Below are positions 1-14,578 of a DNA stretch of 64,000 bases, one piece after another. Source of the stretch: Zopfochytrium polystomum (lineage: Eukaryota; Chytridiomycota; Chytridiomycetes; Chytridiales; Chytridiaceae). Within the stretch, counting starts at the first letter, position 1. Every line of letters begins with the position of its first letter. The DNA is taken from contig JAIVFJ010000029.1 in the NCBI GenBank assembly GCA_025765615.1, positions 397,434-461,433 of the forward strand. Direction: 5' to 3'. Both the position numbers and the translations under genes were made by a program. The notes below the pieces were generated by a model that was not told the DNA's origin, did not search any database, and worked only from the letters and a program-made list of their open reading frames with translations.

Positions 1-183
1 CCCTCCCTGTCTCTTTGACTGGCAGTCAAAGGGCAGTCAACGGGTTGTCTGTCTTGCCCTCTGTCTGACTCTGTATGTTGGCTGTTGATGGAAAAGGAAT
101 AAAATTGTCTGCAATCTCTCACTCTATCTCTGTCTCTATCAAGCTGGGGGGGTTGAAGGGGGAAGGCATCCCCCACTGGGGGG
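1..183. repeat. Degenerate repeat copy flanking the retroelement (left)
   Basis: This stretch and the stretch at about 5717-5895 share a run of matching words in the same order: a CCCTCCCTGTCTCT start, AGTCAACGGG units, GTCTGTC or TCTGTC words, a CTGTTGATGG/CTGTTAGTGG step and a G-rich run before a C-rich run. They are clearly related but diverged. I see no coding potential. It is probably an old dispersed or subtelomeric repeat into which the retroelement inserted. Confidence 0.5.
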
Positions 184-188
184 CTCAG
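184..188. repeat. Target-site duplication (left), CTCAG
   Basis: CTCAG lies immediately outside the left LTR and is repeated exactly at 5494-5498 outside the right LTR. A 5-bp duplication is the usual signature of Ty3/Gypsy integrase. Confidence 0.95.
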
Positions 189-541
189 TGTCAGGAACAG
201 GGCAGGACAGGGCAAGGCAGACAAGGAACTGAGAGGAGTGATGATTGTATTGGAAACAATAATTCACTTGAGGGATGGGACAGGTCCCCCATCCCCCTTT
301 TATACCTTTTGAGAGTGTTCCTTGTCAAGACTCCAAGAAAGTTCCAGAAAGAGCAATTAGTAATACAATGATACCAATGATACCAATGACAACAAGACAA
401 GTCAGGAAAGCAAAGAAGGTTCCAGAAGGTTCCACAAGGTTCCATGAAGGAATGTTCTAGAAGGTTCCAGAAGGTTCCAGAAGGTTCCATGAAGGAATGT
501 TCTAGAAGGTTCCAGAGGTTTCCAGAGGGTGATTCATAACA
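189..541 (-). repeat. 3' LTR (353 bp)
   Basis: It is identical to 5141-5493. In element orientation it is the downstream LTR and directly follows the pol stop codon. It carries the same heat-shock-element array (337-512) and TATA box as the 5' LTR. Confidence 0.95.
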
Positions 542-3500
542 TCATCTCCCCCTTTTAGGCCTCTTCTGCAACTTGGTGGGGTACCTGGTCTTGAACTCGA
601 GCAGAAGGTCTTGGCAGTGAGTGAGGTTTGACTCAGGCTCCCAGGTGTTGTCAGCATCTGAGTAACCTTTCCACTTAACAAGGAACTTGAGTGTTCTTCC
701 AAACCACTTGGCATCCAAGATTTGTTCAACCTCAAATTCCTCTTCACCTTCTACCTCAACTGGAGGAGGAGGAGGAACAACTCTGCCTGGAATGGAATTG
801 GCCACAAACTTCTCTAAAAGGCTGACATGGAAAACTGGGTGGATCTTCATGGATGCAGGGAGATCCAGCTTGAAGGTGACTGGATTGATTTGCTCCAAGA
901 TCTTGAAAGGACCCAACTTGAGGTTGTCTAGCTTGGGACTTGGTCTTTTGGTCTGCAAGTTCTTCCTCAGAAGCCAAACTTGCTGACCCACAGCAAGGTC
1001 ATGGTCCATTCTGTGAGTGTTGGCAAATCTTGAGGCATCTTCTTGGGCTTGCTTCAGGGTGGAGTCCAGGAAGGAGTTGATGATCTTGAGCTTATGTAAG
1101 TGTGAAGCCGCAGCAGGAGCTTGGACATTGGATAGGGTCTCTTGTCCCAGAAGATCTCCTCTTGGATTGAAGCCATAGGTTGCAAAGAAAGGAGATAGCT
1201 GGGTGCTTGAGTGGAGAGAATTGTTGAGAGCAAATTCTGCCAGTGGAAGGAGGGTGGGCCAATCATCCTGTTGATAGCTGACATAGCACCTCAAATACTG
1301 CTCCAGAGTCTGGTTTGTTCTTTCTGTTTGTCCATCAGTCTGAGGGTGATAAGCAGTTGACAGTTGAGACTTGATTCCAAGGGCTGCTGTGAGTGCTTTC
1401 CAAAATTGAGATCTGAACTGTGGTCCTCTGTCACTGACGATTGACTGAGGCAGCCCATGGAGCCTGAATATGTGCTGCAAAAACAGGTCTGCTGTTCCTT
1501 GTGCATCTATATTCTCAGTGCAGGGGATGAAATGGGCCAACTTTGTCCTTCTGCAGATGACAACAAGGATAGAGTCAAATCCATGGGATGGGGGCAGTTT
1601 CACAATGAAGTCCATGGATATTGATGACCAAGGGCTGATGGCAATTGGGAGGGGCTCCAGAAGTCCATAGGGCTTGTGTCTGCTGGATTTGTTTCTTTGA
1701 CAGGTTTCACAGCTGCTGACATAGTTCTTGATGTACTTCCTCATGCCTGGCCAGTAGAAGTCTCTGGAAACAAGCTCATATGTCTTGTGCTCTCCTGGGT
1801 GTCCAGCTGTTGCTGCATCATGCCTTGTCTTGAGTATCTCAAGTTTTTCCTCTTCTTGGCTGATTTGAATCTTGTGAGGCTTGGGGTCCTTGGAAATAGC
1901 ATGGGCCCACACACTGTCAGGAAGCAATGAAAGGTGTGTCTTGGATGGTGGGGTGAAACCATCTCCCCCTTCAGGTGCAAGGTCTGTTCTTCTTGACAGG
2001 GCATCAGCCACAGTGTTAAGGTGGCCAGGAGAATAGCACAGCTTAAAGTCATACTCAGAGAGCAGTTCAGCCCACCTGGCATGCCTCTGCTTGAGCAACC
2101 TCCTTGCCCTGAAGAAGGTGAGGTTCTTGTGATCAGAATAGACAGAGATGCCTTTAGAACCAGCCAAGTAGTGTCTCCAGAATTTGAATGCTTCCACAAT
2201 TGCAAGCAACTCCTTGTCATGGACTGTGTAGTTACACTCAGCACTGTTCAGCTTCCTGGAGTAATATGCCACTGGATGCAGAGGAGCAGAGGGTTCCTGA
2301 GAGCTTGGCTGGGACAGAACAGCGCCAAGGGCATAGTCTGAGGCATCAGTTTCCAAGGTGAAGGGAAGCAAGGGATCCACATGCTTAAGGAGTGGTGCAC
2401 TTGTGGTTGCTGTCTTAAGAGCTAGCCAGGCTTGCTCTGCTGCTGGGGTCCATTCAAACTTGGTGGTCTTCTTGGTGAGATCAGTGAGAGGCTTGGCTAT
2501 GGCAGAATAGTTGGCAATGAAGGTTCTGTAGAAGTTGCAAAATCCAAGGAAGCTTTGTACATCCTTGATGGAATTTGGAGCCTTCCATTCAAGAATAGTT
2601 TGGATCTTGTCTGGTGCCATGGAGATCCCTTTGTCAGACACAATGAACCCCAAAAACTCAATGGAGGTCTTGTGGAATTCACACTTCTCCAGCTTTGCAT
2701 AGAGGTGATGCTGTCTGAGTCTCTCCAAGACAGTCTTGACATGTCCCATATGGCTTGCAGTGTCAGATGAAAATACCAGGATATCATCCAGGTAGACAAT
2801 GACAAAAAGGTCCAGAATATCCCTGAAGATGTCATTCATCATGCCTTGGAAAATAGCTGGAGCATTGGTAAGTCCAAAGGGCATAACCAAGTACTCAAAG
2901 TGACCGTATTTGCATCTGAAGGCAGTCTTCCATTGATCCTGGGGCTTAATTCTGACCAAATTGTAGGCACCTCTGAGGTCAATCTTGGAAAATATCCTTG
3001 CATGGCTCAGTTTGTCCAGTAATTCAGAGATGAGAGGCAGTGGATAGCGGTTCTTGACTGTCATCTCATTGAGATCTCTGTAGTCCACACAGGGTCTCAG
3101 TCCCCCATCCTTCTTCTTGACAAAAAAGATGGGAGCTCCAGCTGGTGACTTGGAAGGTTGGATGAATCCCTTGTTCAGCATTTCTTCAATGTATTCTTGG
3201 AGGGCCTTGGCTTCTGGTGGAGAGAGGTGGTACAGTGGCTTGAAAGGTGGGCTGCAAGTTTCATCCTTGAGTGGGATTTCACAGTCATAAGGCCTCTGAG
3301 CTGGTAGCAGGTCTGCCTTGGTCTTGGAAAACACATCAGCATAAGGGAGATATTCTTTTGGTAGCTTGGATGCCAGCAAAAGGTCTGATGGGTCCAGGTT
3401 GTCGTGCTCCTCAGCAGTGGGGCTTGAATTCTTGACTGGGAACTGTGATTCTTGAATCTTTGACTGAGAGTTCTGTTCTTGGCAAAGACTGTGAGCTGTG

Positions 3501-4261
3501 GAACTTGAATCTTGAATGTGGACTGTGAACTGTGGTACTTGAATCTTTGACTGTGGGTTCTGTGAACAAGAGTCATGGCCATGACTGTGAGCTCTATGAG
3601 CTCTACTTGAATCTTGACTGTGAACTGTGAACTGTGGAACTGGAGTCTTGGCTCGCTGTGAATCTTGAATCAAGGGCTTGAGAGCATGAGACTTGGGGGC
3701 TTGACTTGAGTTTTGGGTGACTGTTCCAATTGGTGGAGGTTGGACTTGACCAGTGACCCAATCAATGGCAGGGTTCTGGGCTTGCAGCCATGGTAATCCC
3801 AGGATGACAGAGAATGTGGGTGAGCCAAGGTCCAATACTTCCAGATTGACCATGGATGGTGGAAAGTCTTGGATGTGGAGGTTTAGCTTGGTTTCATGGC
3901 TGATTTCCTTGAACAGAGCATGATTGGCAAAGTGGACCTTGAGGGGTGTGGATTTCTTGATCGTAGGAATGGCACAAGACTTGGCAAGGGTGGCATCAAT
4001 GATGTTGCAGGATGATCCAGAGTCTATAAGGGCCTTGGTTGTGATGGTTGACTTGGGTGAGAGTTGAATCTTGACATCCATGGTGAGTTGGTGGGGCTTG
4101 GAATCTGAGGTGTTTGTGGTGCTGGTGGTGGTGATGAAACAGGGGCAGCTTGGAGGAGGGTCCAGGGAATTGCCCCTCAGTGAGCCTGGACCTGGGAGTT
4201 TGGGTGCTTCTTCCTTGGGCAGTCCTTGACAGCATGCTCCTTGGAGCCACAGTAAAAACAC
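542..4261 (-). CDS. pol: Pol polyprotein: protease, RT, RNase H, integrase, chromodomain
   Basis: About 1240 residues in one open frame. Order of domains: aspartic protease (DSG near residue 80), reverse transcriptase (catalytic YLDD in VYLDDILVF, near 495), RNase H (TDASDYALG), integrase with an HHCC zinc finger (HPG...H, C-x2-C) and the D, D, E core (MDFIVKLP, SDRGPQF, QTDGQTERT), and a C-terminal chromodomain (about 1175-1235, KFLVKWKGY and NTWEPE). The chromodomain defines chromoviruses and is known in relatives to guide integration to modified histones. The frame opens just after a TAA about 57 nt upstream of 4261 and lies -1 to gag, so expression probably needs a -1 frameshift or re-initiation. 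4261 is a GTG, not a true start. Confidence 0.93.
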   Translation of the reverse strand: MFLLWLQGACCQGLPKEEAPKLPGPGSLRGNSLDPPPSCPCFITTTSTTNTSDSKPHQLTMDVKIQLSPKSTITTKALIDSGSSCNIIDATLAKSCAIPTIKKSTPLKVHFANHALFKEISHETKLNLHIQDFPPSMVNLEVLDLGSPTFSVILGLPWLQAQNPAIDWVTGQVQPPPIGTVTQNSSQAPKSHALKPLIQDSQRAKTPVPQFTVHSQDSSRAHRAHSHGHDSCSQNPQSKIQVPQFTVHIQDSSSTAHSLCQEQNSQSKIQESQFPVKNSSPTAEEHDNLDPSDLLLASKLPKEYLPYADVFSKTKADLLPAQRPYDCEIPLKDETCSPPFKPLYHLSPPEAKALQEYIEEMLNKGFIQPSKSPAGAPIFFVKKKDGGLRPCVDYRDLNEMTVKNRYPLPLISELLDKLSHARIFSKIDLRGAYNLVRIKPQDQWKTAFRCKYGHFEYLVMPFGLTNAPAIFQGMMNDIFRDILDLFVIVYLDDILVFSSDTASHMGHVKTVLERLRQHHLYAKLEKCEFHKTSIEFLGFIVSDKGISMAPDKIQTILEWKAPNSIKDVQSFLGFCNFYRTFIANYSAIAKPLTDLTKKTTKFEWTPAAEQAWLALKTATTSAPLLKHVDPLLPFTLETDASDYALGAVLSQPSSQEPSAPLHPVAYYSRKLNSAECNYTVHDKELLAIVEAFKFWRHYLAGSKGISVYSDHKNLTFFRARRLLKQRHARWAELLSEYDFKLCYSPGHLNTVADALSRRTDLAPEGGDGFTPPSKTHLSLLPDSVWAHAISKDPKPHKIQISQEEEKLEILKTRHDAATAGHPGEHKTYELVSRDFYWPGMRKYIKNYVSSCETCQRNKSSRHKPYGLLEPLPIAISPWSSISMDFIVKLPPSHGFDSILVVICRRTKLAHFIPCTENIDAQGTADLFLQHIFRLHGLPQSIVSDRGPQFRSQFWKALTAALGIKSQLSTAYHPQTDGQTERTNQTLEQYLRCYVSYQQDDWPTLLPLAEFALNNSLHSSTQLSPFFATYGFNPRGDLLGQETLSNVQAPAAASHLHKLKIINSFLDSTLKQAQEDASRFANTHRMDHDLAVGQQVWLLRKNLQTKRPSPKLDNLKLGPFKILEQINPVTFKLDLPASMKIHPVFHVSLLEKFVANSIPGRVVPPPPPVEVEGEEEFEVEQILDAKWFGRTLKFLVKWKGYSDADNTWEPESNLTHCQDLLLEFKTRYPTKLQKRPKRGR
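545..556 (-). other. Polypurine tract, overlapping the end of pol
   Basis: On the minus strand AAAAGGGGGAGA lies 3 nt before the 3' LTR. The same bases encode the last residues of Pol, and the pol stop codon TGA (544-542) fills the gap up to the LTR. Confidence 0.85.
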
Positions 4262-5100
4262 AGTCCCTGCTGGGCCCTCCTTGTTTTCTCCTCTTGGCTC
4301 AGAGGACCCTTAGGAAGTGTCTCAACTGCATCCACTTGCATGGGTTCAGGAACTGTAAGAGCTTGAGGGACTGGGGTAGGTCTTGATGTAGTGCCTACTT
4401 GTCTTTGCTTCAGCCTCTTGGAGTAGAGTCTGTTGTCAATCTTGATGGCAAGGAGAATGTACTCTTCCAAGGTCTCAGGGATGTGCAGAGACTGGGAGAG
4501 CATGTCTTGGATAGACTCATGGAGACCATCATGGTACAGCTCCATCAGAGCTGCATCATTGTATCCAGAGTCTCTGGCTAGTTGCTTGAATTGGTTGGTG
4601 TAGGCCACACAAGATTGCTTTCCTTGCTTGATATGCTTGAGCTTGGATCTTGCTGTCCAAGATGCGTAGGGGTCACCAAAGGTAGCTTCCAGCCCCTCCC
4701 AGAGCTCTTGCAGGGTGGTGGGTGTGCTTGGGAGAGATCTGAACCATGATTGAGCTTGACCAGACAGGAGGGTGCTTGTGAAAAGAACCTTGACTTGCTC
4801 ACTGGGAAATCTTGAAGGTTGGAGAAGGATGACATTCTCCACAGTGGCCATGAAGTTCCTAAGGTCTTTGGCCAGCCCAGTGAACTTGTCAGGGCTGGGA
4901 ACCTTGGGCTCTCTTGCTTGGTTGGCTTGAGGCAGGGGAAGAGCTTGATGTTCTTGTTGGTGAAGTTGTTGTTGAAGCTGGTGCTGCTGGTGAAGGACTT
5001 GTTCTTGAAGTTGTTGTGTCTGTCTTGAAAGGGCTTGTAATTGGTCCATCAAGGCTTGGAAGGCAGTTGCATCAGGGAAGGTGTTGTTTGGGTCAGACAT
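4177..5100 (-). CDS. gag: Gag-like nucleocapsid protein
   Basis: Structural protein of the retroelement, expected to build the cytoplasmic virus-like particle and bind element RNA. It is 307 aa and starts at an ATG 41 nt inside the 5' LTR. The N-terminal part (about 20-60) is a glutamine-rich coiled-coil stretch. The middle (about 65-200) has the shape of a Ty3-type Gag domain, with W-F-R and W-E-G-L motifs. A CCHC zinc knuckle (C-x2-C-x4-H-x4-C, CFYCGSKEHAVKDC) sits about 30 residues from the end. The pol frame overlaps this 3' end in the -1 frame. No stops or frame breaks were seen. Confidence 0.9.
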   Translation of the reverse strand: MSDPNNTFPDATAFQALMDQLQALSRQTQQLQEQVLHQQHQLQQQLHQQEHQALPLPQANQAREPKVPSPDKFTGLAKDLRNFMATVENVILLQPSRFPSEQVKVLFTSTLLSGQAQSWFRSLPSTPTTLQELWEGLEATFGDPYASWTARSKLKHIKQGKQSCVAYTNQFKQLARDSGYNDAALMELYHDGLHESIQDMLSQSLHIPETLEEYILLAIKIDNRLYSKRLKQRQVGTTSRPTPVPQALTVPEPMQVDAVETLPKGPLSQEEKTRRAQQGLCFYCGSKEHAVKDCPRKKHPNSQVQAH

Positions 5101-5127
5101 GATGGCAGAGAGTAGTGGGAGAGGGTG

Positions 5128-5138
5128 AAGTGAATTAT
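5128..5138 (-). other. Self-priming primer-binding site
   Basis: Two bases inside the 5' LTR, the minus strand reads ATAATTCACTT. It does not start with TGG, as a tRNA-primed site would. It is perfectly complementary over 11 nt to AAGTGAATTAT at 5221-5211 in the LTR, where the RNA should begin. Tf1 of fission yeast primes reverse transcription with exactly such an 11-nt RNA 5' end, so self-priming is the natural reading. Confidence 0.8.
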
Positions 5139-5248
5139 GATGTCAGGAACAGGGCAGGACAGGGCAAGGCAGACAAGGAACTGAGAGGAGTGATGATTGT
5201 ATTGGAAACAATAATTCACTTGAGGGATGGGACAGGTCCCCCATCCCC

Positions 5249-5256
5249 CTTTTATA
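5249..5256 (-). promoter_or_regulatory. TATA box of the retroelement (TATAAAAG)
   Basis: On the minus strand the sequence is TATAAAAG followed by a G-run. The presumed transcript start, near 5221, is 35 bp downstream, a normal TATA-to-start distance. Confidence 0.75.
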
Positions 5257-5288
5257 CCTTTTGAGAGTGTTCCTTGTCAAGACTCCAA

Positions 5289-5464
5289 GAAAGTTCCAGA
5301 AAGAGCAATTAGTAATACAATGATACCAATGATACCAATGACAACAAGACAAGTCAGGAAAGCAAAGAAGGTTCCAGAAGGTTCCACAAGGTTCCATGAA
5401 GGAATGTTCTAGAAGGTTCCAGAAGGTTCCAGAAGGTTCCATGAAGGAATGTTCTAGAAGGTTC
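5289..5464 (-). promoter_or_regulatory. Heat-shock-element array in the LTR promoter
   Basis: Alternating GAA and TTC triplets occur at exact 5-bp steps, the HSF1 binding pattern. Runs seen: three units at 5289-5301 (GAA, TTC, GAA), a run at 5367-5394 with one mismatch, eight perfect consecutive units at 5402-5439 and four at 5447-5464. The whole array lies about 35-210 bp upstream of the TATA box in element orientation, where a promoter activator site is expected. The other LTR has the same array at 337-512. HSF regulation is inferred from the motif only. Confidence 0.75.
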
Positions 5465-5493
5465 CAGAGGTTTCCAGAGGGTGATTCATAACA

Positions 5494-5498
5494 CTCAG
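5494..5498. repeat. Target-site duplication (right), CTCAG
   Basis: Exact copy of 184-188, directly abutting the right LTR. Confidence 0.95.
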
Positions 5499-6091
5499 GG
5501 GGCGGGAGCCTCCATACAGAGAAGCGTGATGTGGCTGAACCCCGCCCCCCACCAAACTAAAATACTATTTCTGCTTATAATTTTGCAAAGTCAACTGGGC
5601 TGTTGTTTCTATTATTCAAGGATTTGTCACTCTCTGAAAGTGGCAGGGAAATTCAAAAAGGAAGGAAGTCAACAAGCTGTCTGTCTATCTGAGTGGAAGT
5701 CAAAGGGTTGTCTACCTCCCTCCCTGTCTCTGAGTCTGGGAGTGGCAGTCAACGGGCAGTCAACGGGTTTTCTGTCATCCTCTATGTCTCTGATTCTGGC
5801 TATTGGGCTGTTAGTGGACAAGTTATCAAATCAGCCGCGACCTCTCTCTTTTGAGTGGGGGGGTTGAGTGGCGTCAGTCCCCCCACAACCCCCTGACTCG
5901 AAAACAATTTTCCCTCATCCCTCTACATGGCGTGCCACTGCATTCATTGTGGACTGCCACACTCTTCAGTATCTTCTTTTTTTCTCCTTTTTTTTGGGGG
6001 GAAGGATTGTTTACAAGTCAACGGGCATCCCCTAGTGATGTAATAAAACAACAACAAGAAGAAAAGAACGACAAGGATTTGCAATCCCATA
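5499..6091. repeat. Intergenic region with the right-hand repeat copy (about 5717-5895)
   Basis: It begins as a continuation of the repeat interrupted by the retroelement (G-rich then C-rich words around 5499-5550). It contains the diverged second repeat unit at about 5717-5895 and ends as the upstream region of the first zinc-cluster gene. No gene is seen. The word AGTCAACGGGCATCCCC recurs near 6015. Confidence 0.4.
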
Positions 6092-9000
6092 ATGATCAAT
6101 GCCGTTGTTGCCACCCGCGGCAACGAGGGGGCCGAAGGCGGCGCAAGAGCCGGCGACCGCAACGGCGTCCTCCTCTCCTCGCCCACTTTCGACTCTGCCT
6201 GGGCTGATCCGGGACCGGCTTCTTCGGTCCATGCCGCAACTGTCCCCACCGCACCCGCACGAGGAGCAAACCACCGCCGACCCCCCTCAGTCTCGAAACC
6301 CACCAAAGCCAAAGTGAGGACAAAGCCGAACGGTCCGGCGCGAAGGTGCACAGCTCTGGTTGCGTCCCCTCCCCCCCCTTACTCCAGAATGTGAAAATGC
6401 GAGCTGTCCAACTGACTTTGCAATTCCAAGGTCTTGCGAGACCTGCCGAAAGCGAAAGATTCGCTGCGACGGCGTCCGTCCGACGTGCGGATTCTGCCTC
6501 CAGAAAATGACCGTACCGTGCGTGTTCGAGAGCTCCAAGAACCGCGTCGAAGACGACCTGGCGCGCCAGTTTGAGGCCGAGCGACGCAGACGCCGCATGT
6601 TCGACGGGGGCAACGACGCAGACCGTCCAGCCAAAAAGAGGAGCAAGCTGACGTCTGGACTCAACGCGGCAGCGGCAACCGTCGCAAGTTCCATTTCAGC
6701 CGCCTCTGCAGCGCCGACGCCGCTCCTGCTCCTGGAGGAGCAGCAGGTCACGCATCTTTTAACTCCGATACCAGTGGGTCCGGCCGGCGGTTTCGGCTTT
6801 GGGATGCGCATTGGCGGTGAACAATCACCCGCGACGTGGCGGGCTGCACCAGAGAAGCTGGAGCAGGGAGAGTTTTCGTTCAACCACCGCCCGTCCTCGT
6901 CGTTCGCCGGTAGTGTCCCCCCTTTGGCCTCACCTTCGCTTTCGGTCCAAACAACTCCGCTGCCACCGAAACCGATCGATTGGGACGATCCCGACCACCG
7001 GCGCCCCGGCTCCGCCCCTGGCGAACAGTACGCCTTGGCCGTGATGTACTTCTAATTTTCAACGTTCTCTGCCGTTTACCTCCACAGAAGGAGCATTCTG
7101 AAAAACTTTGGATCCATCAACCCTTTGCTACGGTACTCTCATTCAATTCTTGGTTCAACTATATTTAACACAAAGTTGGGCTGCGTCGCATTCGCAGATT
7201 GGCTATTTGTGCAGTGGGAGCGTTGACACCACTGACGAGTGCTTTGAGCAATGATGTATCGGAGTGGTATTACGAACGAGCGTTGTCTTTGACCGTATCC
7301 GCGATGGATGCCCCAACAATCGAGACCTTTCAAAGCTTAATGCTACTAATTGAAGTTGCTTCAGGTGAGCGGGTGACATTCTTTTCTTCCAGAAACGAGC
7401 AGGAGATAACGCGCTTTCAACGTCTTTCACAGCTACTGGACTGCGTTCGACGTGGTGGGGGCGTGTTCGACTTGCCGCTTCATTGGTGCGTAGCAGCCAT
7501 CATCACTTGAGAATAAATTCTAACTTTGGCGAGACAGGCAATCACGTTGAATCTGAATATCGACCCGGATCTTCTTCCACCCAGTGAGCTGGCAGAAGGG
7601 ACTTGGTTGGAAAAGGAGACGAGGCGAAGGTGCTGGTGGGCATTCTACTTGGTGGAGCGAAGTACGTGCATACTTTCAGTCTACGCGATTCAATTGAAAG
7701 CGACTGATCCATTTTCACCAGCTTTGGCAGACACATTTTTTCAAGCTTCGCTCATCAGTAATAACATTTGCTCAGTGCAGCCCATGTGCTCCGACGAAGT
7801 ATGGTTCAGCCCAAAGGACCCCGCAAGTCTGGAGCATTTATACGAATCCACACGCAGTCCTCGAGCTAACCTGTTCACGTTCCGGATCAAGCTGAGCAGC
7901 CTTTGGAACGAAATCGCCGTGTGCGCGAGTCCAGAGCCATTGTATCAAGTGGACATTGAGGCGATACGTATGACCGAGAGACGCCTTGAACAAGAACTCG
8001 ATGAATACCGTAAATCGTTTCCGTCGGAATTCTCCGTGCACCTGAACGAAGACTGGATTTTCGAGACACAGGACACGGACCAGTACCAGTTCCACTCCAT
8101 TATCAATCAGTTCATTTCATACCACGGTGGTCGCTGCCATCTAATGCGACGCCGGTCTCTTGTGCATTTGCGGGAAGTGTCGGCCTCGCTCGCTGGCTCG
8201 AGGCTGGCCCCGGACGAAGAGAATCGCGCCGCACTGCAAAAGGGCCTCGCATCTGCCGTGGCGATTGGAAGGCTCCTTTCACTCCTCTTGAAGTCCCCTG
8301 GCGCCATCCAGCGCTTCCCAATTTTCCTCACATTGCCCATCATCCAAGGATGCACCATGCTCCTGATGGCCGACGGCCTCGTCCCAGCCTTTACCTCGGG
8401 CACCCCCGCAGGGCTCGACGCGTCTCCCGTGACGGGTGCGGATATTGACCCAGCCGAGCTGCCCAAGCTGATTGACAGCTACACCCAGCTGCTACGCACG
8501 CTCGGCGGCCGGAACCGCGCCATCAACAACCACGCCGGGGTCTTCGAGCAGTTCCGCGCGTGCGAATGGAACGACCTCGAGAAGCTGTGCAACGACCCTG
8601 CAAAGCTTCTGAGCGTCGACTATATGGGCGACGGCAGCGAGCCGGACCTGGACTCGATCGGGCCGTGGCAGCGGCGCGTCAGGATGCTGTCGGCCGTCGC
8701 GAGAGAGTTTCTGTCGGGCCTGCGAGCTGCGCGCGAAATCAGCAGCCGCATGACACCGCCGCAGCCGCCTGTCGTGGTGCCGCGCGTCCCGGGAGGAAAA
8801 GTGAGCAGGGCGCTGATGGCGTCTTTGAATTGGGCGGACCTTGTGGAACAGCAGCACCAGCAACAGCACCAGCCGAGCGGAAGTCGCTTCCTCCCAAGCC
8901 CTCTGGTTGCCGTTCCGTCGACTGTGTCCGACGCTGCTTCTTTCTCTTCGTCGCCGGAGTTGTTTGGTTCTGACGGCGGGGCTGAAGCAGAAAGCACTGG

Positions 9001-9112
9001 ATCTGATTCTTGGTTTGACAGCGAGGCACCGTTGGCAGATAATCCCGATGACGGAGACAACGCCATGGTGCTCTTGGACTGGCTATTCTCTTCCGAGCAG
9101 TCCGTTCTATGA
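6092..9112 (+). CDS. Zn2Cys6 fungal transcription factor, copy 1
   Basis: A nuclear DNA-binding regulator. Seven exons join in frame to 882 aa: 6092-6345, 6431-7045, 7088-7132, 7198-7364, 7433-7485, 7538-7661, 7722-9112. The zinc cluster is C-x2-C-x6-C-x6-C-x2-C-x7-C from Cys87 to Cys115, split from the N-terminus by intron 1, and is followed by a basic RRRRR stretch. The rest matches a fungal_trans (MHR) regulatory domain (PMCSDEVWFS, GGRCHLMRRR). The last 25 residues (PLADNPDDGDNAMVLLDWLF) are shared with both neighbours and look like an acidic-hydrophobic activation motif. Intron 6 is 60 nt and in frame, so retention is possible; copy 2 supports splicing. Target genes are unknown. Confidence 0.88.
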
Positions 9113-9603
9113 TGCTTTTGCCCGGACTTTTTGAAAATGAAAAGTCTCGATTTACACCCTCAAGTTAGAATCCATTTCCCCATTGAGCCCCACTCGTTCA
9201 GCACCTGTAAACTGACCTGCACTTGCGATGCAATAAAACTTTTGTCGTGCCCATTTCTGTCGTTGGCTTTGTAGGTACTTCGATTTTCGCTTCCTGGCTC
9301 CTTTACTCGCGTCGTGTGCGGGGTTTGCGTGCCCGTCAAGACCGTGGGTGGGGTCACACCGCGTAGCGCCCACATTGATTGAGTTGGAGAGAGAAAAAGG
9401 CGATCCAGGATGACGTTTCCCGGTGCCGCCTACGTTGTGTCTTTTTTGTCCGTTCAATCCCGGCGCCTTCTTCATTTGGAAAGGTTGGGGATATCAAAAA
9501 AAAGAAACGAAAACTGGAAGAACATGGAGAGAAAAAAAGAAAAAGAAAAAATAGGAAAAACGAAGAAAAAACAACGGACCTCGTCGTCGGTTCCGTTCAC
9601 CCA
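9113..9603. other. Intergenic region before transcription factor copy 2
   Basis: No gene is seen. It ends in a purine-rich A/G tract (about 9495-9575), probably 5' UTR of the next gene. Upstream in-frame codons continue to 9379 but contain no ATG, so I take 9604 as the start. Confidence 0.4.
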
Positions 9604-12600
9604 ATGTCCGTCGCTCCGCTGCCGCCCCTCGACGACACCACCCACGCCCTCGGAGGCGTCTCCATCGACGACGACGACCGCCTGCCGCCACCACCCCCCC
9701 GCCACCCCGCCGCCGCCGCCGCAGCCGCCGCAGCCGACCACGAAGATGGCGACGGCGGGGACGAAGTTGGCGGTGCCCCACTCTCTATGCTGCCATTGAC
9801 GACGGATCGAGTCCCTCCTGCGAAACCGCCGTCCTCCTCCAGCCGCAACGGCCCGGCCCGCAGATGGTCCGAAGAAAAGCGTGTACACAGTCCCGCCGCT
9901 TCTCATCCCGATCCTTTCTTGCTCCACCATCATCAACCCCTGTCCTCCCCTTTTCCTACGTCGCGCGACAAATCCCAAAAAATCAATCCACCACACAGGT
10001 CGTGCGAGACGTGCCGGAAGCGCAAGATCAAATGCGACGGGATCAGACCGACGTGCGGCTTTTGCGCCCGGAAAAACATACTCCCTTGCGTGTTCGTGGG
10101 AACAAAGGATCGCGCGGACGTGGATCTGGCTAGGCAGTTCGAGGCAGAGCGGCGTCGACGGCGACTTATCAAGCAGATCCTCGCGGCTCCCGCCGTCCCG
10201 GCGCGAGCTGTAAAGAAGACCAAGTCGACACCGTCCATCGGCATCGGTGCCCCGCCGGGTTCTATTGCCGCGAGTCCCCCGGTGTCGGTTTCGGAGAGTT
10301 CCGGTTCCGACGCTCACTGGGGGATTCCAAATTCATCGTTCCTCGGCCTTGCAACTCCGATTTTGAACGGCTATGGACCGTCAAGCAGTCTGCCCTCCGC
10401 GCCCTTCCATAACCAAACGCTGCCTTCATTTTCACCGAGTACCCTCCCGTCCACATTTTCTGCCAAAAACCCCGCTGCTTCCAGCTCCACGCCGATGACT
10501 CCAGTTTCGAAAGGACCTATGGGAGCACCTTCCAGTCCGTCAGATTGGGACGATCCGGCGTTTAGGCGTCCAGGCTCCGCTCCCGGCGAACAGTTCGCTC
10601 TGGCACTGATGTGCTTCAAGTTTCCTTCGATTGTTGTCGCTTTTGTGCATCGGAGGACGGTCCTGAAAAACTTTCGAACCATCTCTCCGTTATTGAGGTG
10701 CGGTTGAGTAAGGAGTCTTGCATTTTCCAACGCTGCTCTTTGTTTGTACCTGTAGGATGGCTATATGCGCAGCAGGTGCCCATGAGTCGTGGACGAGCAC
10801 TACAAGTGAAGAAGTCGCGCAGTATTACTACGACCGAGCCTGTAGTTTGACCGGAGTAATATTTCAGAACCCATCCATTGAAGCATTCCAAAGCTTGCTG
10901 ATTCTAGTCAAGATAGCGACTGGTATGAACCGCTGCTTAAAGTGATCTCTCTCGTTGCAGACTTCTGAACATTATGAATAAGGCATCGGACAGCGCTCAA
11001 TGTGGACTGACAAACTTCGAATGGCCGTGTCAATGGTGAGCCAACAACAGTATTTGAGCCCACTGACGCGCAACACAGGTTTTCTCCTTAAACTTGAACC
11101 TCGATCCGGACACTCTTCCAGTAGGGCTTTTATGCAACAACTCTTGGGTTGAAAAAGAAACGAGAAGGAGATGTTGGTGGGTTTGCTATCTGATTGAGAC
11201 AAGTAGGAGGTTTGCTCTTTTCGATTCAACGACTAATTCTGCATATCTCCAGCATTGGCCGCAATCTTTTTCCAACCCCCTCTACTGACCAGAAATATTT
11301 CCACGGTTCAACCAATGTGCAACGACGACCTTTGGTTCAGCTCAGTCGATCCGATTAAGCTCGAGCATCTATACAATCAGGATCGCCGGCCCGAGAAGAA
11401 TTTGTTGACCTTTCGCACCCAATTGGCCGACATCAGCAACCACATTTACGCTGTGTCGACGCCTGAGCCGTTGAAAACGATGGATTGGAGTGCAATTTCC
11501 GCTGTGGAACGTCGACTGGAACAGGATCTCCAAAACCACTGGGGCAATCTCCCACCGGAATTCAAGATGGAACTCACTGAAGACTGGCTCTTTGAGACAA
11601 TCGACAGAGACTTTTATCTATTTGACAGCGTTGTAGGCCACTTTATATCATTTCACGGCGCTCGGAGTCACTTGATGCGTCGGCGAGGACTCCTGTACTT
11701 GCAGGAAGTTTCTGCATCTCTCGCTGGTGCTCCCGTCTCACCAGACGACGCCAACCGCGTTGCCTTGCAAAAGGGCTTGTCTTCGGCGGTTGCAATGGCC
11801 AAGCTATTGGAGTTGCTGATGAACACGCCCGGCGCCATTCATCGCTTTCCAAAGTTCAGCATTTCCACGGTAGTGCGGGGCAGTACGATGCTTTTGATGG
11901 CAGAGGGCCTCGTTCCGGCCTTCACTGACAGTCCCAGGATTGGAGATATTGCCAATGACGTTAATCCCGCCCACATACCAAAGCACATTGATACGTACGT
12001 CGCTTTTCTTCATGCCATGGCAAGCCGAAGCAAGATGGCGACCAGCTTGTTGGACGTGATTCAGAAAATGCGCTCTTCGGACTGGAATGTGATTGAAACG
12101 CTTTGCGCTGAACCAAGCAAAATTCATTCTATAGACGTGACTGTCGACGGCCTGGACCAAGATCCGGCATTCATGGGCGTGTGGCCGCGTCGCGTGAGGG
12201 TCCTATCACTAGTGATTCGGGATTGTCTCAGTAGCATCCGCACTGCGCGTACCGTGAGTGACCGAATGAGCCCATTGGCTGCTGCAAGTAGCCTTGCCAA
12301 GGGTGCGACAGATGTTGCAACGCGAGGACACGGACCTCCGTTTCGACCGCTGTCAGCCTCCCGCAGCTGGGGCGACGTGCCGCTGCTGTCGCGCCCGCAG
12401 TTTTGGGGTATGGGAAGCGGACTGTCGTATTCATCGCAAGCATTCGGCGGACCCGTTTCCCAAGAGCCGGAGACGTTCAGTTGCGGGGAGGAGGACGTTG
12501 GCGGAACAGGCGACGCCGCCTGGCTCGAGAACGAGCCTCCTCTCGCGGACAACCCCGACGACGGAGACGATGCGATGGTGTTGCTGGACTGGCTTTTCGC

Positions 12601-12622
12601 AACTGACCCGAAGACTGACTGA
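9604..12622 (+). CDS. Zn2Cys6 fungal transcription factor, copy 2
   Basis: Tandem paralogue of the gene at 6092-9112. Six exons join in frame to 920 aa: 9604-10610, 10656-10697, 10756-10922, 10983-11035, 11079-11202, 11253-12622. Five introns sit at the same places and phases as introns 2-6 of copy 1, and three internal exons have identical lengths (167, 53 and 124 nt). The zinc cluster (Cys134 to Cys162) has the same spacing. The N-terminal 130 residues hold low-complexity alanine, proline and acidic runs. The intron found before the zinc cluster in copy 1 has no usable splice pair here, so that stretch is read as protein. The C-terminus carries the shared PLADNPDDGDDAMVLLDWLF motif. It is probably a nuclear regulator of unknown targets. 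Confidence 0.88.
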
Positions 12623-12683
12623 AGCACTGTGCAAATCGCTCTTCGTTTGATGGGTATATTTCTGTTGAATTTTCCCGTAATAA

Positions 12684-12729
12684 TAATATGGTATGGAGTC
12701 GGATTGTAATATGGTATGGAGTCGGATTG
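12684..12729. repeat. Perfect 23-bp tandem duplication
   Basis: TAATATGGTATGGAGTCGGA plus 3 bases occurs twice in direct succession (12684-12706, 12707-12729), about 60 bp after the stop of copy 2. It is probably a local replication-slippage event. Confidence 0.9.
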
Positions 12730-12829
12730 TCAGCAAATGTCTTCAATGAATAGACGCCGTCAAAGCATTTTGCTCCTTATGGAAGCGAGACACTAAAATT
12801 GTCGTAAACTGCTATTTGCCTGCACTTAA

Positions 12830-13400
12830 CGTGGAGTGGGTTGTCGACTTGCGGCTTCGTTGGTGGATGGTATCGCTGTCATCTTCCAATATTTCTGTTC
12901 AGACGTTGGCGAAGGCAACTACTTTGCGTTCCAATTTGGACCTGTGCTTTTCCAGTTGGCAGAAGGAACTTGAAAAGTGACCAGGCGGAGGTGCAGGTGG
13001 GCATTAAACTTGATGAAGCGAAGTAAGTGCGCCGTTTCAGAAGACGCAATTCAATCGAAAGTCACTCAAACAAAACACCAGCTTTGGAAGACGCGTTCTT
13101 CCAACACTCACCCATCAGCAATATTTTTGCTGGACAACGGGCGGTTCAGCCCGAAGGATCCCCAGAGTTTGGAGAATTTGTACAAAACCACTCCTGGTCC
13201 TCGGGTAAACCTGTTCACGTCCTGGACCACATTGAGCAGCGTAAGGAACGAAATCGTCGTATGCGCGGGTCCACAACCGTTGTAGCGAATAACATGGAGG
13301 CGATTCGAGTGACCGAGAGGACCTTGAACAAGAAGTCGATGAATTCCGAAAATGGATTCCAACGGAATTCTCCGCGCACATGAACGAAGATTGATATCGG
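12830..13400 (+). pseudogene. Decayed 5' fragment of a third zinc-cluster regulator
   Basis: The DNA aligns by eye with exons 5-7 of copy 1 (about 7450-8050): the TCGACTTGCGGCTTCGTTGG block, the CGGAGGTGCAGGTGGGCATT block, the ATCAGCAATA and GGTTCAGCCCGAAGGA blocks, and the codons for MEAIRVTER. Reading frames change repeatedly, TAG and TGA stops occur in frame, and there is a deletion where PMCSDEVW should be. It ends at AACGAAGATTGA near 13395, before a GC-rich joint. No zinc cluster remains upstream. It is more like copy 1 than like the ORF that follows. Confidence 0.75.
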
Positions 13401-13477
13401 CCGCGGCCCGCGGGGAAGATGCGGTAAACTTGATTCAATTCATTCAAGTATATTCGAAGCGAAAATCACGCAGATGA

Positions 13478-14578
13478 TTGCCACTAATGGAACTCCCACA
13501 GCCTCGTTGGTCTTTGGGACAAGAGTTGGAAGATTTCAAGAACGCGCTACCCGAGGGCAGTGTCTTGCAACTTGACCGCCAGTGGATGTACGAGACTATG
13601 GAGACTGATTTGTTTCACTTCAATGGAGTGGTGGGCTGTTATCTTCTCTATCAAGGAGGTCGTTGTCTATTGATGCGGAGGCGAGCCCTTCTGTACTTGC
13701 GAGAAATGTCTGCAGCTTTGGAGGGATCCAGACTTGTTCCCGACGAGGCAAACCGAGTAGCGCTACAAAAAGCGCTTTCGTCTGCGGTTTCGATGGCGCG
13801 ATTTATCGCCGCGCTACTGAAGTGGCCCGGAGCAGTGCAGCGCATCCCCAACATCTTTATCCCGCCCATTGTTCAAGGTTCCATGACCCTTGTCATGACT
13901 GATGGCTTGATTGCCCCTTTCACTCGAAGTCCCGACTTTGGAGAAATGTCAGTGAGTCTCAATCCAGGCGAGATCCCGCAGCACCTTGAGAACTACCTCA
14001 CACTCCTTCGCGGCATCAGCAGCAGGTATAAAACCGTCACAAATATGGGATGTTTGTTGGAAAAGTTCCGCTCGTCTGACTGGCAGGGCCTTGAGACACA
14101 TTTCCAATCAGACAATCTGATGAAACTGGATAGGCTTGGGCAAACACTCGGAACGGATGCGGCGGCGGCAGGCGTCTGGCAACGACGCGTGTCGATCTTG
14201 TCGGATGTCATACGAGACTTCCTTTCAAGCGTCCGAACGGCTCGTGAAGTCAGCAAGCGTTTGTCTCCCCTGTCCGTGAGCGATCTCCAAGTCGGTGATG
14301 GCTCCACTCCACCTCACCCAAGGCAGCTCTTTCAGCCGGTACCGAGCTGGGCCGATATGCCTGGGATGTGTCAGCCGCACTGGCTCAAAACCCAGCAATT
14401 CGTGGTCCCAAACGGTTTCGTGCCCGACCGTGACGGGGACTACCCCTCGGTGACTGCGACAGACACCTCTGGTCAGTGGTACGAAACAGAGCCTCCTCTT
14501 GCGGACAACCCCGACGATGGCGACGATGCCATGTTACTTTTGGACTGGCTGTTTTCATCGGACCCGCTTCCGTCGTAA
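13478..14578 (+). CDS. Truncated regulator ORF lacking the DNA-binding domain (copy 3)
   Basis: An intact 366-codon frame (first ATG at 13487) homologous to the last half of copies 1 and 2. It has the GGRCLLMRRRALLYLREMSA segment, the DWQGLE segment, and a C-terminus with PLADNPDDGDDAMLLLDWLF. It begins within the region equivalent to residues just after MTERRLEQEL of copy 1, and CTCCCACAG at the start could be an old splice acceptor. The zinc cluster and linker are missing. Its start overlaps in homology with the end of the preceding decayed fragment, so the locus is a joint of two copies rather than one eroding gene. It may be a relic, or a protein able to act without binding DNA; the open frame alone cannot decide. 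Confidence 0.6.
   Translation: MPLMELPQPRWSLGQELEDFKNALPEGSVLQLDRQWMYETMETDLFHFNGVVGCYLLYQGGRCLLMRRRALLYLREMSAALEGSRLVPDEANRVALQKALSSAVSMARFIAALLKWPGAVQRIPNIFIPPIVQGSMTLVMTDGLIAPFTRSPDFGEMSVSLNPGEIPQHLENYLTLLRGISSRYKTVTNMGCLLEKFRSSDWQGLETHFQSDNLMKLDRLGQTLGTDAAAAGVWQRRVSILSDVIRDFLSSVRTAREVSKRLSPLSVSDLQVGDGSTPPHPRQLFQPVPSWADMPGMCQPHWLKTQQFVVPNGFVPDRDGDYPSVTATDTSGQWYETEPPLADNPDDGDDAMLLLDWLFSSDPLPS

What the first reader, a model, noticed from the sequence alone, without database searches (positions are those of the whole stretch)
5289..5464. Heat-shock-element array drives a chromovirus LTR
GAA/TTC triplets alternate at exact 5-bp steps, including eight perfect consecutive units (5402-5439) and a three-unit site nearest the TATA box. 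Known heat-responsive retroelements such as ONSEN in Arabidopsis are Ty1/copia; an HSE-loaded LTR on a self-priming fungal chromovirus would be a separate, possibly undescribed case of an element that has captured the host stress factor HSF1.
Basis: partly seen in the sequence, partly recalled or inferred. Interest (0 to 1): 0.78.

Follow-up and report, generated by a model that had tools for sequence, protein, structure and literature searches.

The report
Heat-shock-switch array in a chytrid retrotransposon
A very abundant jumping gene in the chytrid fungus Zopfochytrium polystomum carries, in its promoter, a long array of the same kind of DNA switch that lies in front of the fungus's own heat-shock genes, so it is probably switched on by stress, although that has not been tested.

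Summary
Both identical 353-bp LTRs (5141-5493, 189-541) of a minus-strand Ty3/gypsy chromovirus hold 19 perfect GAA/TTC units at 5-bp steps in runs of 4, 8, 4 and 3; 5000 shuffles never exceeded 4 units. Host: the chytrid Zopfochytrium polystomum. The array is family-wide: 2170 LTR anchor sites, 994+993 matches to a 7-unit HSE, 0 reversed. It is also a minisatellite whose 10- and 45-bp units vary between copies. Support for HSF: host HSF genes; 9 of 12 hsp20 promoters with near-perfect HSEs 16-75 bp upstream of TATA, 0 of 444 control segments; triplets vary less per site than spacers; less diverged copies have longer runs. The element is almost CpG-free (10 in 5305 bp), recalling ONSEN. Best reading: an HSF-driven LTR; binding and heat induction are inferred. 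Heat-activated fungal Ty3/gypsy elements are known (Tf1, MAGGY, TCN3); an array like this is a new variant.

The parts
189..5493 (-). Ty3/gypsy chromovirus with open gag and pol (self-priming type), 5305 bp
5141..5493 (-). 5' LTR, 353 bp, TG...CA ends, identical to the 3' LTR, no CpG
189..541 (-). 3' LTR, 353 bp, identical
184..188 (.). target-site duplication CTCAG (copy next to the 3' LTR)
5494..5498 (.). target-site duplication CTCAG (copy next to the 5' LTR)
5447..5464 (.). HSE run of 4 units (distal, 5' LTR)
5402..5439 (.). HSE run of 8 perfect units (5' LTR)
5367..5384 (.). HSE run of 4 units (5' LTR)
5289..5301 (.). TATA-proximal HSE, 3 units (5' LTR)
   Evidence: genome-wide copies
5366..5482 (.). 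minisatellite, periods 10 and 45 bp, containing the 4-8-4 HSE runs
337..512 (.). the same four HSE runs in the 3' LTR (337-349, 415-432, 450-487, 495-512)
5250..5256 (-). TATA box (TATAAAA, LTR position 238)
   Evidence: sequence
5211..5221 (-). self-primer AAGTGAATTAT (LTR positions 273-283), 35 nt after the start of TATA
5128..5138 (-). primer-binding site ATAATTCACTT, exact complement of the self-primer
542..556 (-). polypurine tract AAAAGGGGGAGATGA next to the 3' LTR
4177..5100 (-). gag, 307 aa (Retrotrans_gag, Ty3_capsid)
542..4261 (-). pol, 1239 aa: protease, RT, RNase H, integrase, SH3, chromodomain; another frame than gag

Best explanation
The LTR's U3 is a heat-shock-factor-driven promoter. 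Host HSF trimers bind the 3-unit HSE about 32 bp upstream of TATA and, cooperatively, the 4-8-4 unit array about 110-210 bp upstream of TATA. Full-length RNA then starts about 35 nt after the start of TATA, at the 11-nt self-primer, and is reverse transcribed without a tRNA. The element so ties its amplification to proteotoxic stress or other HSF activity. The array grew inside the family by slippage or duplication of a 10-bp unit (and a 45-bp unit, also a multiple of 5 bp) from short 4-unit proto-arrays. Its near-total lack of CpG would make the promoter hard to silence by CpG methylation. Shown by sequence: HSE geometry, family-wide presence, position relative to TATA and self-primer, host HSF genes, matching host HSEs, CpG loss. 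Inferred: HSF binding, heat induction, RNA start, selection for array length, escape from methylation.
For: 19 units against a shuffle maximum of 4. Genome-wide: 5-unit pattern 2229+2234 against 0+1 reversed, 7-unit 994+993 against 0+0, LTR anchor 1076+1094 against 0+0. 14 HSF_DNA-bind matches, 4 of them covering most of the domain in one open frame; the one read matches PDB HSF1 and HSF2 (E 1e-25 to 1e-23). hsp20 promoters: 9 of 12 with a 4-unit HSE at 11 of 12 letters, 16-75 bp upstream of TATA, 0 of 444 control segments. Proximal HSE in 1832 LTRs: triplets altered in 94 (9 sites), spacers in 103 (4 sites), i.e. 0.57 against 1.41% per site. Among distinct array decamers, changes fall on spacers more than triplets, 28 to 17 (p=0.002) or 20 to 13 (p=0.013) by tolerance. 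Longest run rises with LTR identity outside the array, Spearman 0.68, n=31. LTR has no CpG; host encodes C5-methylase homologues.
Against: No expression, ChIP or binding data. The array is a tandem repeat, so its many units are few independent events. Distinct single-base changes are not clearly fewer in triplets: 9 of 18 possible against 8 of 12, or 7 of 18 against 8 of 12 with the stricter tolerance. The 1832 LTRs share ancestry, so p=2.8e-10 is inflated. The age/length trend includes copies fetched because they match 4- or 5-unit patterns, and several long-array copies share one array haplotype. Three of 12 hsp20 promoters have no good HSE (best 7-8 of 12 letters); a perfect run of 3 or more was found in only 1 of the 13 hsp20 regions; none has an array. 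HSP70 and HSP90 promoters were not read.
Confidence: 0.7

Rival explanations
1. The array is a neutral minisatellite in U3 whose 10-bp unit happens to read as alternating GAA/TTC; it amplified by slippage and hitch-hikes on a successful element, without regulatory effect.
For: Tandem periods of 10 and 45 bp; copy number varies strongly between LTRs, array stretches of 29 to 164 bp among the 22 distinct ones listed; the chance that a repeated random decamer shows the geometry is 0.0026, small but not negligible.
Against: A further HSE sits by the TATA box outside the minisatellite, and its triplets are altered less per site than its spacers; most hsp20 promoters read use the same geometry at similar positions. 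19 of the 22 listed array stretches have lengths that keep the 5-bp register; the three of 63 bp do not, nor does L053, which has a 1-bp deletion there.
Confidence: 0.16
2. HSF does bind, but mainly for basal or developmental expression (for example in zoospores or sporangia), not heat; or the many arrays act chiefly as an HSF sponge.
For: Fungal Hsf1 also serves basal transcription (recalled). Up to about a thousand 7-unit sites in one genome could titrate HSF.
Against: Nothing here speaks for a developmental trigger; the matching host sites found are in hsp20 promoters.
Confidence: 0.1
3. The repeat binds a different transcription factor or serves another LTR role such as polyadenylation or RNA packaging.
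For: Tandem enhancers of other factors are common in LTRs (recalled).
Against: The units match the HSE consensus exactly; the array lies upstream of TATA, so it is outside the 5' part of the RNA (inference).
Confidence: 0.04

Closest known systems
ONSEN/COPIA78 and relatives, Arabidopsis (PMC3907296, PMC5059998; passages read)
   Same: heat-responsive element (nGAAn boxes) in the LTRs; strong 4P HRE that arose by duplication of a proto-HRE; [quoted passage not shown]
   Different: Ty1/copia, plant; cluster of four nGAAn motifs; HSFA2 binding and heat induction shown by experiment. Here: Ty3/gypsy, chytrid, 19 units in the window copy and up to 12 in one run in a sampled copy, not tested; CWG sites remain (14 in the LTR)
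TCN3 and TCN12, Cryptococcus (PMC12810828; passages read)
   Same: TCN3 is a fungal Ty3/gypsy element with 5-bp TSD, recovered only at 37 C; putative HSEs in the LTRs (two in TCN3, one in TCN12)
   Different: few putative HSEs, no array described in the passages; the authors call HSF-type activation of TEs undescribed in fungi
Tf1/Tf2, fission yeast (PMC7175516; passages read)
   Same: Ty3/gypsy with self-priming; Tf1 primes with 11 nt and its transcription is induced by heat
   Different: no HSE is mentioned in the passages read
MAGGY, Magnaporthe (PMC3978060; passages read; Ikeda 2001 seen only as a citation there)
   Same: fungal LTR retrotransposon activated by heat shock; that it is a chromovirus is recalled
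   Different: the term HSE does not occur in that paper; also copper and oxidative stress
DIRS-1, Dictyostelium (PMC2685390; passage read; Zuker 1984 seen as a citation there)
   Same: retroelement with a heat-shock promoter in its terminal repeats
   Different: inverted terminal repeats; that it uses a tyrosine recombinase is recalled
Caenorhabditis Helitron HSEs (PMC6927752; passages read)
   Same: many, partly tandem HSEs spread over a genome by a mobile element
   Different: DNA transposon; HSF-1 binding shown by ChIP-seq

Membership tests
Ty3/gypsy chromovirus | gag plus pol in the order PR-RT-RH-INT | tested here: met
   Pfam order in 542-4261 and gag 4177-5100
Ty3/gypsy chromovirus | chromodomain at the C-terminus of integrase | tested here: met
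   PF00385 at residues 1176-1226, E 3.5e-16
Ty3/gypsy chromovirus | LTRs with TG...CA ends and a 5-bp target duplication | tested here: met
Tf1/sushi self-priming group | RNA 5' end complementary to the PBS | tested here: inconclusive
   11-nt exact complement found, but the RNA start is not mapped
Heat shock element | three or more contiguous alternating nGAAn units | tested here: met
   runs of 3, 4, 8, 4
HSF-driven heat-responsive LTR retroelement (ONSEN-like function) | HSE upstream of TATA in the LTR of family members | tested here: met
   31 of 31 usable distinct LTRs (a set largely chosen by HSE pattern); proximal HSE triplets intact in 1738 of 1832 LTRs found by anchors outside the HSE
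HSF-driven heat-responsive LTR retroelement (ONSEN-like function) | HSF binds the LTR | not testable with these tools
   HSF genes and matching hsp20 HSEs only
HSF-driven heat-responsive LTR retroelement (ONSEN-like function) | RNA or DNA copies rise on heat stress | not testable with these tools
   no expression data
ONSEN/COPIA78 itself | Ty1/copia pol order and plant host | tested here: not met
   gypsy order, fungal host

The most novel reading that the evidence does not exclude
A methylation-proof, HSF-addicted retrotransposon: a lineage that lost nearly all CpG while keeping open gag and pol, and lengthened an HSE array step by step, each gain raising stress-dependent transcription and family success, until its long HSE arrays (up to about a thousand) became the dominant HSF-binding DNA in the genome, acting as an HSF sink and rewiring the host heat-shock response.
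Probability: 0.2. Interest if true: 0.82.

Novelty: new variant of a known kind. Interest (0 to 1): 0.6.

Why it matters
A 2026 paper on Cryptococcus states that heat-shock activation of TEs through host machinery remains undescribed in fungi (PMC12810828, passage read). This family gives a clean test: about two thousand LTRs in one chytrid, arrays in sampled copies from 4 to 24 units in runs of three or more, a host HSF and host HSEs for comparison, and an almost CpG-free promoter. It would extend ONSEN-type capture of the heat-shock response to Ty3/gypsy elements and to an early-diverging fungal phylum, and let the dose-response of HSE number against element success be measured.

Tried and rejected
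Local minisatellite only: rejected as the whole story, because the array is in both LTRs and in LTRs across the genome; it remains a minisatellite by sequence.

LTRs of relatives in other genomes: the closest pol relatives by identity (P0001, 69% over 76% of the query; P0002, 61%) lie on short jgi contigs of 4966 and 3527 bases, and no metagenome scan was available; a viral-contig scan with P0001 found no relative. So conservation of the array beyond this genome is untested.

Non-family HSE arrays: a 4-unit pattern with another spacer gave 34+41 matches, 1+4 for the reversed control. Four odd ones were read: three are LTRs of this family, two of them diverged, and one (C189) is not an LTR of it.

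A first triplet/spacer count used a filter that favoured triplets; it was replaced by an unfiltered tiling, which gave a weaker result in the same direction.

HSP70 promoters: the search failed five times and was given up. HSP90 was not searched.

Rows dropped: 44 LTRs (window copy included) gave 32 distinct. Four of these are partial (L044_2029, L052_1, L048_9678, L042_1), have no array region and were left out; L068-L070 were added there, giving 31 and 24 distinct array stretches. L066 had no TATA box in its stretch, so 12 of 13 fetched hsp20 regions entered.

Full report
WHAT IS THERE. The window's first 5.5 kb hold a minus-strand LTR retrotransposon, 189-5493, with open gag and pol. The LTRs (5141-5493 and 189-541) are 353 bp and identical, begin TG and end CA, and are flanked by CTCAG on both sides. 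Gag is 4177-5100; pol 542-4261 reads protease, RT, RNase H, integrase, SH3 and a chromodomain and is in another frame than gag, so a programmed frameshift is likely (inference). A polypurine tract precedes the 3' LTR; the 11 nt AAGTGAATTAT at LTR 273-283, 35 nt after the start of TATA, are the exact complement of a site just after the 5' LTR, the Tf1-type self-priming arrangement (a passage on Tf1 in PMC7175516 also gives 11 nt).

THE ARRAY. Each LTR has perfect alternating GAA/TTC units at 5-bp steps in runs of 4, 8 and 4, and a separate run of 3 close to TATA: 19 units. In 5000 dinucleotide shuffles of the LTR the mean was 0.036 units in runs of three or more, the maximum 4. The rest of the window (5501-64000) has one 3-unit run, about what 20 shuffles give (0.85). 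The array is at the same time a minisatellite with periods 10 and 45 bp, both multiples of 5, so the number of units must not be read as that many independent hits; a single decamer repeated at random would show this geometry with probability 0.0026.

HOST AND FAMILY. The SelO ORF of the window is 100% identical, over the 47% of it that the local alignment covers, to a Zopfochytrium polystomum protein on a 461433-bp contig, the length of the window's contig C29; the species is a chytrid, Chytridiales. The genome has 80.2 Mb. An LTR anchor near TATA occurs 1076+1094 times at up to 3 mismatches, 0+0 for the reversed pattern. A 5-unit HSE pattern occurs 2229+2234 times against 0+1, a 7-unit pattern 994+993 against 0+0; one 8-unit run gives one match on each strand and longer runs more, so there are at most about a thousand such arrays. 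In 16 regions fetched around 5-unit hits the arrays coincide with LTRs of this family. All 31 usable distinct LTRs have a run of at least 4 units, but most were fetched because they match an HSE pattern, so this is not an unbiased rate. Not selected on the HSE: of 1832 LTRs with exact anchors on both sides of the TATA-proximal HSE, 1738 keep all three triplets.

IS IT AN HSE IN THIS FUNGUS? The genome has 14 matches to the HSF DNA-binding domain, four of them over most of the domain in one open frame. The one read (L072) contains SFVRQLNMYGF and matches HSF1 and HSF2 of the PDB. Of 13 hsp20 regions fetched from 33 matches, 12 have a TATA box in range; 9 of these 12 carry a 4-unit HSE with 11 of 12 letters right, such as GAATTGTCCAGAAACTTC, 16-75 bp upstream of TATA; none of 444 control segments of the window reaches that (26 reach 10); the other 3 score 7-8. 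A perfect run of three or more was found in only one of the 13 regions, and none has an array. Several of these promoters are close paralogues, so they are fewer than nine independent cases. The proximal HSE of the LTR lies about 32 bp upstream of TATA, in the same range.

SELECTION. At the proximal HSE the 9 triplet sites are altered in 94 of 1832 LTRs, the 4 spacer sites in 103: 0.57 against 1.41% per site (binomial p 2.8e-10). Because copies share ancestry and mutation spectra may differ, this is suggestive only. In the arrays, changes among distinct decamer variants fall more on spacers (28 against 17, p=0.002; 20 against 13, p=0.013 with a stricter tolerance), while counts of distinct single changes do not differ clearly (spacers 8 of 12; triplets 9 of 18, or 7 of 18 with the stricter tolerance). 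Copies more diverged outside the array tend to have shorter runs (Spearman 0.68 for the longest run, 0.59 for units, n=31), as if the array had grown in the lineage that now dominates; sampling by HSE pattern and shared haplotypes weaken this. The history proposed for ONSEN, duplication of a proto-HRE (PMC5059998, passages read), is similar.

CPG. The element has 10 CpG in 5305 bp (obs/exp 0.034), its LTR none, with TpG/CpA in excess (1.43); the window from 6000 on is at 1.07, and 115 of 115 500-bp windows there are at 0.6 or more. In the 16 sampled regions, of 180 500-bp windows outside this element 15 are below 0.2, 49 between 0.2 and 0.6 and 116 at 0.6 or more; the windows inside it are mostly below 0.1, some up to 0.30. 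The host has C5-methylase homologues (19 HMM matches, some with stops inside; none was read). This fits long exposure to CpG methylation and a present form nearly immune to it; ONSEN's promoter is described as free of CG and CHG (PMC3907296, passages). This LTR does keep 14 CWG sites. Methylation itself was not measured.

MECHANISM. I think it most likely (0.7) that HSF binds these sites and makes the LTR stress-inducible. Shown: anatomy, family-wide presence, host HSF and HSE. Inferred: binding, induction, benefit to the element. A neutral minisatellite (0.16) is the main rival.

NOVELTY. Passages read show that heat-responsive fungal LTR elements exist (Tf1, MAGGY, TCN3), that putative HSEs have been noted in Cryptococcus LTRs, and that HSF-type activation of TEs was called undescribed in fungi in 2026. 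The rows listed by library searches (titles and starts of abstracts; the lists of 26, 43, 62 and 63 were capped) showed no paper on an HSE array in a chytrid LTR; the library lacks most subscription papers. I file it as a new variant of a known kind: a longer array than the four-motif ONSEN HRE and the two putative TCN3 sites, in another superfamily than ONSEN and in a chytrid, with a nearly CpG-free element.

Noticed in passing
window 189-5493: Extreme CpG depletion of an element with open gag and pol (obs/exp 0.034) beside a host at 1.07; DNA next to sampled copies is often depleted less strongly.
   Followed up: partly
L040:3116-6298 and L054:2816-6006: 2.83-kb derivatives with the same HSE LTRs: gag is kept and RT, RNase H and the integrase core are missing; in L040 protease, part of the zinc domain, SH3 and chromodomain form one 531-aa ORF. 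Pairs of array matches about 2.8 kb apart recur elsewhere (C81, C220).
   Followed up: partly
G000:C6:359955-372704: Five LTR anchors on one strand at exact 3171-bp spacing, apparently a tandem array carrying the LTR.
   Followed up: no
G000:C6:235306-240513: LTR anchors in alternating orientation with an exact 1725-bp period.
   Followed up: no
window 1-188 and 5494-6000: CpG-poor flanks sharing a 63-nt repeat (4-66 and 5727-5789, 81%): the element may sit inside another repeat.
   Followed up: no
window 6978-14578: Repeated coding segments (9011-9100, 12521-12610, 14477-14566; 6978-7118 and 10543-10683) suggest tandem paralogous genes, one ORF with a Zn2Cys6 domain and one with a sub-threshold fungal transcription-factor match.
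   Followed up: no
L065: An hsp20-like gene whose promoter has a perfect 3-unit HSE instead of the common GAATTGTCCAGAA type.
   Followed up: no
G000:C17:412513 and C403:29912; C345:31694 and C34:226897: HSF domains in pairs with equal or nearly equal scores, perhaps haplotypes or recent duplicates.
   Followed up: no
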